64,000 nt of DNA from Opisthocomus hoazin. Lineage: Eukaryota > Chordata > Aves > Opisthocomiformes > Opisthocomidae. Below the pieces are notes generated by a model. It was not told the DNA's origin. It did not search any database and worked only from the letters and a program-made list of their open reading frames with translations. This document shows positions 56,801-59,800 of the stretch, piece after piece; positions within the stretch are counted from its first letter, which is position 1; every line of letters begins with the position of its first letter. Where the stretch lies: positions 17,469,115 to 17,533,114 of the forward strand of contig NC_134429.1 in NCBI RefSeq assembly GCF_030867145.1, read 5' to 3'. The translations under genes and the position numbers were made by a program.

Positions 56801-59800
56801 CATTTAAAGGGCAATTAATGTGGTTCAGGGTGCACTTAATTAGCATTCACCAGTTCTGAAGCTGAGGTCTTTGGAAACCTTTAAACACTATGCAGGGATG
56901 CCAGTATTCCTGAAGCTAATATTATTGGTAGCTGACTAATTATGGTCTCTGCTTATGGGGAAGAAGGAAGTTCACACTGGAACTACTGGTTTATGCAGTG
57001 GTGGGTTCACGTAGATTAGAAGGATGGTGCCATGTTCATGCTGTATTATTATTTAAGAGCAGACAATCAATTTCTGTGCCTGCATCCATGTACAGAAGCA
57101 TTGTGTCAAGTGTAAAACATGCTAAGGTGATGCTTTAGCAGTGTTGCAGAATGATAGCAGACAGTGAAATGCCTGAGCTGCTGCATGCTGGACTTCTGGG
57201 GAAACGTGTATCTTTCCCTTTACTCATCCATTCTGTGAAATTCCTTCTCTAAATGCTGTCATTCAGCCACTCGAGGTTTTGGTCCACAGTGGTGTTTGCA
57301 ATAGTATGGATAACCAGGTGGAAAGACCAGATACAGCTTTGCTGGTGGTGCACAACTTCTTCCACCCTTTGAACCTTTTGTTTCTAGTCTGCTGCTCAGT
57401 ATCAAAACAGTTGTGGACTTGTAGGTCTGTTTACCTATTTGAGTCCTTTTCTTTTTCTTGCATGATTGGCTTTGTTTTGGGCTGTGAGTCTTCATCTCTT
57501 CCTTGATTCTCTTGTCCATTTCACTTCTGTCAGGTGTATCCAGAGCTGTTAAATATGTTAATGAGTTCCTGGCGACAGCATTGTGTACACAGGTAATGGA
57601 TGTGCTTTCAGTGCAACCTTGTCACTTGGATGAATTTCTCCAGTGCATGGTCTTGCAAACTAACATTGCAGCAGGCATTCCTAGATGATGCTGACGTCAT
57701 GCAGCTTCCATTGAATTGAGGTGACCTCCTGTAAGTGTTCAGATTTGGCTGTAAGCTCAGGTTGCATTGGGGTTTGAATAGCATGAGGTGGTATTCTTGC
57801 GATTTTACTGTTCCTGAGATCACCTACTAATGCCTGCATAACCAGTGTGGTTGACCAGTGTCCGATTTGCCTGTTCCTTCCAGGTGTCTCAAAAGCTGTT
57901 GAGCACGTCAATAAAACAATTGCACCTGCATTGATTAATAAGGTAGGAGCAATCTATCTTCTGCTAACATCAGATAGTGTCAGTCCAGTGTGTCCTAACT
58001 GAGGAGTTCTCTCTAGAGACAGTTACCGGAACTGTGTTACATTGGAGGGGTGTTAGCCTGTGTCTGGGGGTGCACGTGAACAAACTGACCTACAGCCATT
58101 GCTTTACTTAATGACTGCATATCTAACACTTAATCAAAACAAACTCTAGCAGCCTAGTGTGGTAGTGTGCAGAAATACTTAAGCACCTGGGAACTTCAGT
58201 AGCATGTGGTTGAGATACAAGCTGCTTTATGCTTAAAAGGGTGGCTGAATGATGCAGAGGGCCTCGGCGTTATCCAAGCTGGCTAATTTGGAAGGGGATC
58301 TGAGGGGACCCTAGTAAAGCCTGCGTGAGCGAGATTCCTGTGCACTGTTTGGGTGCTAAGCTCCAGCTAGAAAGGATGGTGCAAAAGGAAGTGGTAATGC
58401 ATAAAGTGATTGCACGTTGTTTGGAACTGTCACTAAGATTATGTACGAAGTTACAAATGGATGTGTGTCATGAGCAAGCTGGTTGTCTTTGAGCTTGCAC
58501 TAAAGGGGCGGGGCATAAACTGGGCCTTTCTCCTATGCCATGCCAGGTAGATAGCAGTGTAAATGGCAGGAAGTCAAGGGACATGACAGCCTTCCACCTG
58601 TGAATGCAAAGAACAAAATGAGCTTTTGATGTCTCCAACTTGTCAGCCTTGGTGTGCTGGAGGTGACCCGAAGATGCTGCTGTGTGATAATGACAGGAAC
58701 TAGTCTCTTGAACTGTTGGTAGCTGCCCTTAGGCAGGTGTTGGTGCCTGGCAGGAAAATAAAAATGCAGTGGGTGGATCGGACTTTGTAGAGCCATGTTT
58801 GGTGTCAAACAGTGCTTTGATTTTCTCTGCAGAATGTCAACGTTGTGGAGCAAGAAAAGATTGACAGGCTGATGCTGGAAATGGATGGATCGGAGAACAA
58901 ATGTAAGTGGGCTTTGTGTGGCAGTGAGGAGTGAAAAGATGAGGATTGGTTTACAGAATTCTAGCTTACCTTAGCAGAAACAATGAGCGGTGCATGGCAT
59001 ATGCAGTGCACTTCCATAAGCAAGATCATGGTGCTGGTATTGCTGAGTCTCTTTAGGAAGACATAACATTTCTATAAACAATGTTTTCCTATTTCAGCCA
59101 AATTTGGTGCCAATGCCATCTTGGGTGTGTCTCTGGCTGTCTGCAAAGCTGGTGCTGCTGAGAAGGGTGTCCCCTTGTACCGTCACATTGCTGACCTTGC
59201 TGGAAATGCAGAAGTCATTCTTCCAGTTCCTGTAAGTCTTGTGATATCGCTAGCTAAAGACTTGATCTGACCAGGTGCTTCAATGATGTCTTGTGGTCTT
59301 GGATCCCAAGTTTTCGAGAGAATGAAGAGTCTTAACATAAATGCTGTTATCAGTTTACCCTGAAACATTCTAACTTGACTTTTCTTGGTTACTCCAAGGC
59401 TTTCAACGTGATCAATGGTGGCTCCCATGCTGGCAATAAGCTGGCTATGCAGGAGTTCATGATCCTCCCTGTGGGTGCTGACAGTTTCAAGGAGGCAATG
59501 CGCATTGGTGCAGAGGTCTATCACAACCTAAAGAACGTAATCAAGGAGAAGTATGGCAAGGATGCAACCAATGTGGGTGATGAGGGTGGTTTTGCCCCCA
59601 ACATCCTGGAGAATAAGGAAGGTAAGAATGAGCTAAATGTGGGAGGAGGCGTAACTGATAGCCAGAGAATGAAGACCATACCTGTTTGAAAGGAAAGCAA
59701 GATGAGTAGGTTCTAGGACTTGCTGCTGTTTCTTTGTTCTCCTTCTTACCCTGACAGAGTCTCCAAGATGGCGTAGTGGTGTGGTCTAGTATAGGACCAC

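What the first reader, a model, noticed from the sequence alone, without database searches (positions are those of the whole stretch)
57534..57942. Two 59-bp versions of ENO1 exon 4: candidate mutually exclusive exons in alpha-enolase
Two adjacent segments have identical length (59 bp), identical phases, good splice sites and 10/20 shared residues. 59 is not a multiple of 3, so using both breaks the frame and only one can be used per mRNA. The downstream copy (4b) is the usual sequence. The upstream copy (4a) replaces a helix of the N-terminal domain: EHVNK becomes KYVNE (charge reversal at both ends) and TIAPALINK becomes [10 protein letters not shown] decaying duplicate would be expected to pick up stops or lose splice sites; 4a has not. 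A second enolase isoform could differ in dimer stability, surface binding or crystallin-like use. I do not know whether it has been described.
Basis: partly seen in the sequence, partly recalled or inferred. Interest (0 to 1): 0.88.

Follow-up and report, generated by a model that had tools for sequence, protein, structure and literature searches.

The report
Second version of enolase exon 4
A bird-like genome carries two interchangeable copies of one small exon in its alpha-enolase gene, probably letting one gene make two versions of a basic sugar-burning enzyme; the sequence supports this but no RNA evidence was available to prove it.

Summary
Exon 4a (57534-57592) and the standard exon 4b (57884-57942) of ENO1 are both 59 bp, in the same phase, with GT-AG sites. 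They match at 36 of 59 nt and 10 of 20 aa. Either exon alone gives a full 434-aa enolase; both together, or neither, gives an early stop. Among 528 AG-59-GT segments in the window, 4a scores 49 against 4b and the best unrelated one 11.

The best reading is a tandem-duplicated, mutually exclusive exon pair. 4a looks constrained rather than decaying: dN/dS against 4b is about 0.24, there is no indel, and flanking introns show no remaining similarity. Neutral simulations make this only moderately unlikely, and 'no stops' alone is weak: it happens in 66-70% of runs.

A dense CU-motif tract precedes 4a, and TGCATG motifs lie on both sides. This suggests a PTB/RBFOX-type tissue switch like PKM exon 9/10 (inference). 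The ENO2-like gene has one exon 4.

No RNA data or vertebrate relatives were on hand, so use in mRNA and conservation are untested. My 10 paper searches showed no description, but supplements and gene annotation could not be opened.

The parts
55229..55324 (+). ENO1 exon 3 (shared upstream exon; ends in first base of the split Gly61 codon)
   Evidence: Spliced translation and alignment to alpha-enolase chains of the PDB
57429..57533 (+). CU-rich tract upstream of 4a (candidate PTB-binding tract, 43-nt AG-free zone before the 3' splice site)
   Evidence: Highest TCTT/CTCT/TTCT count of any 100-mer on the window's + strand, the only stretch reaching 11; three stretches on the - strand also reach 11; function inferred
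57459..57464 (+). TGCATG (RBFOX-type motif) 5' of 4a
   Evidence: motif name recalled, binding not tested
57534..57592 (+). ENO1 exon 4a, alternative: (G)[19 protein letters not shown]
57644..57649 (+). TGCATG (RBFOX-type motif) between 4a and 4b, 51 nt after 4a
   Evidence: 2 within 200 nt of 4a against 0.26 expected, P about 0.03
57884..57942 (+). ENO1 exon 4b, standard: (G)[19 protein letters not shown]
   Evidence: PDB alpha-enolase 2psn_[21 protein letters not shown]
58833..58902 (+). ENO1 exon 5 (shared downstream exon)

Best explanation
Exon 4 of ENO1 was duplicated in tandem long ago, and the two copies are now alternative, mutually exclusive exons. The spliceosome joins exon 3 to either 4a or 4b and then to exon 5, giving two 434-aa alpha-enolases that differ at 10 residues within residues 61-80, a helical segment of the N-terminal domain (helix recalled, not computed). 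Exclusivity is enforced by frame: 59 nt is not a multiple of 3, so double inclusion or double skipping makes an early stop and the mRNA should go to nonsense-mediated decay. The 291-nt intron between them looks too long for a steric block, and the four splice sites of 4a and 4b are GT-AG. 4b is the default. 4a is probably held off by CU-tract (PTB-type) repression and released, with help from RBFOX-type TGCATG motifs, in tissues with little PTBP1 and much RBFOX (muscle, heart, neurons). Shown: exon anatomy, homology, frame logic, motif counts. Inferred: use in mRNA, the regulators, the tissues, any change in enzyme behaviour.
For: Identical length and phase with usable splice sites: 5' score 3.36 for 4a against 4.28 for 4b, within the range 1.9-8.3 of the 11 sites scored with recalled consensus frequencies; 3' pyrimidines 13/17 for both. 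Either exon gives a full ORF; both or none stops early. 4a keeps the Enolase_N domain: 190.3 bits against 199.3 with 4b. dN 0.37, dS 1.58 (NG86). A neutral model with 4b free to change only synonymously reaches the observed BLOSUM score in 10%, 16/20 similar residues in 1.1%, score plus no stop in 8.9%, and leaves the four splice-site bases unhit in about 17%. If 4a takes all the change, the first two figures are 1.9% and 0.17%. No indel in 59 nt. Flanks are no more alike than shuffles, which fits an old duplication with the exon kept. CU-tract and TGCATG placement.
Against: No transcript, peptide or cross-species data. Only 20 codons, so the constraint tests are modest, and the score test under the fairer model is not significant on its own (10%; 10 identical residues is reached in 25% of those runs). 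dS is near saturation. Differences by codon position are 8/4/11, not strongly skewed. Non-conservative changes occur (T->F, I->C, P->T), and against the ENO2 outgroup 11 of the 13 polarised nt differences fall on the 4a side (10 of 23 unresolved), so 4a evolves faster than 4b. The 4a 5' site lacks the +5 G. TGCATG excess is only P about 0.03-0.05, and CU stretches as dense occur three times on the - strand. The ENO2-like gene has no second copy.
Confidence: 0.75

Rival explanations
1. 4a is a non-functional relic: an old exon duplicate that has kept its frame and splice sites by luck and is not used in mRNA.
For: Neutral simulations keep an open frame in 66-70% of runs; 4a is the faster-changing copy; no RNA evidence available.
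Against: Joint odds are low: score plus no stop 8.9% and splice bases unhit about 17% under the fairer model, and no indel although that model implies about 27 substitutions on 4a. No flank similarity is left. A pronounced CU-tract lies upstream.
Confidence: 0.15
2. 4a is a poison exon: it is spliced in together with 4b to make a stop at 96 aa and lower ENO1 through nonsense-mediated decay, and its peptide does not matter.
For: 4a+4b shifts the frame and stops inside 4b; the 291-nt intron allows both to be included.
Against: A poison exon needs no homology to exon 4 and no conserved enolase-like peptide, yet 16 of 20 residues are similar and the domain score holds.
Confidence: 0.06
3. The region is part of the 5' end of an intron-3-derived short transcript for MBP-1 (the shorter ENO1 product), and exon likeness is incidental to that.
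For: A shorter ENO1 transcript from intron III is reported to contribute to MBP-1 (passage in PMC3599235).
Against: Exact 59-nt length, phase, both splice sites and peptide similarity are unneeded for a 5' leader. No promoter test was made.
Confidence: 0.04

Closest known systems
PKM exons 9/10 (M1/M2 pyruvate kinase)
   Same: Mutually exclusive exons in a glycolytic enzyme; PTB, hnRNP A1 and A2 suppress the M1 exon 9 (PMC12487847 passage). Enolase is the step just before pyruvate kinase (recalled).
   Different: In PKM a ligand-binding residue for allosteric fructose-1,6-bisphosphate differs between isoforms (PMC9741552 passage); ENO1 exon 4 lies in the N-terminal domain. PKM switching is established; ENO1 switching is not.
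PFKP tandem exon substitution
   Same: Named with PKM as having splice isoforms that differ at such a residue (PMC9741552 passage).
   Different: Different enzyme and region; I saw one sentence only.
U2AF1 exons Ab/3
   Same: Duplicated exons whose choice depends on branch-point and pyrimidine-tract organisation (PMC5224494 passages).
   Different: Factors named there include U2AF, FUBP1/2 and SRSF3; mutation of a putative PTBP1 motif there had little effect.
ENO1/ENO2/ENO3 paralogue switching
   Same: Tissue-specific enolase proteins, e.g. ENO1 to ENO3 in mouse heart (PMC12487847 passage).
   Different: Separate genes rather than alternative exons of one gene.

Membership tests
Tandem-duplicated mutually exclusive exons | Neighbouring exons with sequence homology | tested here: met
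   36/59 nt, 10/20 aa; score 49 against 11 for the best unrelated of 528 candidates
Tandem-duplicated mutually exclusive exons | Similar length, same phase, intact splice sites | tested here: met
   Both 59 bp, same split codon, GT-AG
Tandem-duplicated mutually exclusive exons | Each alone gives a full ORF; joint use disrupts it | tested here: met
   434 aa with either; stop after 96 aa with both
Tandem-duplicated mutually exclusive exons | Both exons appear in mRNA, mutually exclusively | not testable with these tools
   No RNA data on hand
Tandem-duplicated mutually exclusive exons | Conservation of the alternative exon in relatives (usual, not strictly defining) | not testable with these tools
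   No vertebrate collection. Pattern scans gave 6 viral contigs and 9 genome-contig loci; 0 of 15 encode an enolase match by tblastn at E 1e-3
Functional enolase isoform | Enolase_N domain retained with 4a | tested here: met
   PF03952 190.3 bits against cut-off 35; 199.3 with 4b
Functional enolase isoform | Catalytic activity | not testable with these tools
   Needs protein work
PTB/RBFOX-regulated exon | Dense CU motifs upstream; TGCATG nearby | tested here: inconclusive
   Only CU stretch reaching 11 on the + strand, three on the - strand; TGCATG P about 0.03; binding untested

The most novel reading that the evidence does not exclude
Alpha-enolase of birds or sauropsids, and perhaps older lineages, has an undescribed, tissue-switched second form made by exon 4a. 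Two consecutive glycolytic steps (enolase and pyruvate kinase) would then each be tuned by PTB-type mutually exclusive splicing, and the switch might cover muscle or lens roles elsewhere served by a paralogue.
Probability: 0.35. Interest if true: 0.72.

Novelty: new member of a known kind. Interest (0 to 1): 0.58.

Why it matters
ENO1 is one of the most studied housekeeping enzymes, also a bird and reptile lens crystallin and a surface plasminogen receptor (recalled). A second protein form from one gene would bear on which form does which job, and would give a second glycolytic test case beside PKM for how duplicated exons are kept apart. It is easy to check with public RNA-seq.

Tried and rejected
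Steric or U12-type exclusion was judged unlikely: the intron between 4a and 4b is 291 nt and their four sites are GT-AG.

A third copy or one in a paralogue: no other candidate in the window. The ENO2-like gene on C1 has one exon 4 and a 283-bp intron 3 (L012:4277-4559) with nothing 4a-like (best score 19 over its 59-mers; no AG-59-GT candidate there in the top six; intron edges). The ENO4-like C6 region, read in two stretches, shows no AG-59-GT segment above a score of 7, but its own exon 4 was not recognised, so ENO4 says little.

Processed copies carrying 4a, which would prove splicing: the two own-genome enolase searches list only the ENO1 locus, the C1 locus, short C6 matches and one weak C21 match under the cut-off (only best candidates are scored). 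No ENO3 appeared in them.

Relatives through contaminated records: a degenerate 4a pattern hit 6 viral contigs and 9 genome-contig loci; 0 of 15 give an enolase match.

Papers: 10 of 10 searches used. No listed title or abstract start describes this exon pair; lists were capped (20 of 24, 15 of 248, 12 of 23) and most listed papers were not opened. ENO1 and enolase are not named in the main texts of PMC9741552, PMC4465641 and PMC5740500 (term find). PMC3228551: abstract and outline only. PMC3599235, PMC5224494, PMC12487847: found passages only.

My first exon table had wrong edges for exons 5 and 7; corrected. Notebook slips: '97 aa' should be 96, and ENO2 intron '260 bp' should be 283.

Full report
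The window (G000:C16, a 1.48-Gb assembly) holds the coding exons of an ENO1 gene on the + strand: 53812-53896, 55229-55324, exon 4, 58833-58902, 59098-59231, 59399-59621, 61194-61391, 61636-61837, 62220-62328, 62759-62817, 63332-63401 (the first starts at the ATG). The spliced protein is alpha-enolase; its best PDB matches are named alpha-enolase (2psn_A, 9x4f_A, 3b97_A; human origin recalled).

Exon 4 comes in two forms. 4b (57884-57942) encodes (G)[19 protein letters not shown], close to [20 protein letters not shown] of 2psn_A. 4a (57534-57592) encodes (G)[19 protein letters not shown]. They agree at 36 of 59 nt; 10 of 20 residues are identical and 16 of 20 have a positive BLOSUM62 score. 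Of 528 AG-59-GT segments on both strands of the window, 4a scores 49 against 4b and the best unrelated one 11. The exon-exon local alignment score was reached by 0 of 400 single-base shuffles. The likeness is not chance.

Frame logic: with 4a or with 4b the ORF is 434 aa. With both, translation stops after 96 aa, inside 4b. With neither, after 70 aa. Both faulty mRNAs have an early stop far upstream of the last junction, so nonsense-mediated decay is expected (inference).

Is 4a kept by selection? NG86 gives dN 0.37 and dS 1.58 between 4a and 4b, ratio 0.24; codon positions differ 8/4/11. I ran two neutral models to the observed 36/59 identity. With all change on 4a, an open frame is kept in 66%, the BLOSUM score reached in 1.9% and 16/20 similar residues in 0.17% (000 runs). 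With 4b also changing synonymously, which is fairer, the figures are 70%, 10% and 1.1%; 10 identical residues are reached in 25%; score and open frame together in 8.9%; the four splice-site bases stay unhit in about 17% (000 runs). About 27 substitutions are implied on 4a, so zero indels in 59 nt is itself unlikely at the usual indel-to-substitution ratio (recalled, roughly 1:8 to 1:14; not computed). Flanks show no more likeness than shuffles: fractions of shuffles reaching the observed score are 0.77 (100 nt up), 0.17 (250 up), 0.74 (100 down), 0.26 (250 down). Together this favours constraint, but 20 codons cannot settle it, and 4a is the faster-changing copy: with the ENO2-like exon as outgroup, 11 differences are derived in 4a, 2 in 4b and 10 are unresolved, of 23.

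Protein effect: the Enolase_N domain keeps 190.3 bits with 4a against 199.3 with 4b. The ten residues kept (G, V, S, A, V, V, N, A, A, L) are mostly small or hydrophobic. The swapped charges are not foreign to the family: yeast enolase 1 reads GVLHAVKNVNDVIAPAFVKA at the same place, with K and D where 4a has K and E and 4b has E and K. I expect a folded, active enzyme with a changed surface (inference; no structure was predicted).

Control elements: 100-mers starting at 57429-57449 hold the densest TCTT/CTCT/TTCT cluster of the + strand, the only stretch reaching 11; three stretches on the - strand also reach 11. The AG-free zone before the 4a 3' splice site is 43 nt, equal longest of the 11 sites checked. 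TGCATG occurs at 57459 and 57644, 2 within 200 nt of 4a against 0.26 expected (P about 0.03), and 5 times in intron 3 against 2.0 expected (P about 0.05). This is the layout expected of a PTB-repressed, RBFOX-helped exon (recalled), as for PKM exon 9, suppressed by PTB, hnRNP A1 and A2 (PMC12487847 passage). Binding is untested.

Elsewhere in the genome: an ENO2-like gene on C1 has one exon 4 (GVLQAVDHINSTVAPALVGS at L012:4560) and a 283-bp intron 3 with no second copy. Short ENO4-like matches lie on C6; its exon 4 was not recognised in the two stretches read. No ENO3 appeared in the two enolase searches. So in what could be compared the pair belongs to ENO1 alone, or was lost in ENO2.

Placement: it meets the sequence features of a tandem-duplicated mutually exclusive exon pair that could be tested. 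Use in mRNA and conservation could not be. PMC9741552 (passages) reports 236 such human events, most of them ancient and conservative in their changes, three quarters of the isoforms tissue-specific; the first two points fit what is seen here. No listing in my 10 paper searches describes an ENO1 pair, but I could not open supplementary lists or gene annotation, so an existing annotated isoform is quite possible. I file it as a new member of a known kind, with the regulatory model marked as inference.

Noticed in passing
window 1-12340 and 17394-27978: A tandem duplication, 99.1-99.2% identical, each copy with a Pentaxin-domain ORF on the - strand (10045-10671, 25686-26312); Carb_anhydrase matches lie at 30290-30667 and 34273-34650, - strand, so it looks like a CA6-type gene (recalled). 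It may be a young duplication or two haplotypes laid end to end by the assembler.
   Followed up: partly
window about 6861-8630: A CR1-like element (RVT_1 match; ATTCTATG-type 3' end) sits in the first copy of that duplication only; the second copy shows the empty site. The insertion seems to postdate the duplication or to be polymorphic, i.e. recent CR1 activity.
   Followed up: partly
   Followed up: no
window 62759-62817: ENO1 exon 11 is also 59 bp, by coincidence as far as I can see.
   Followed up: no
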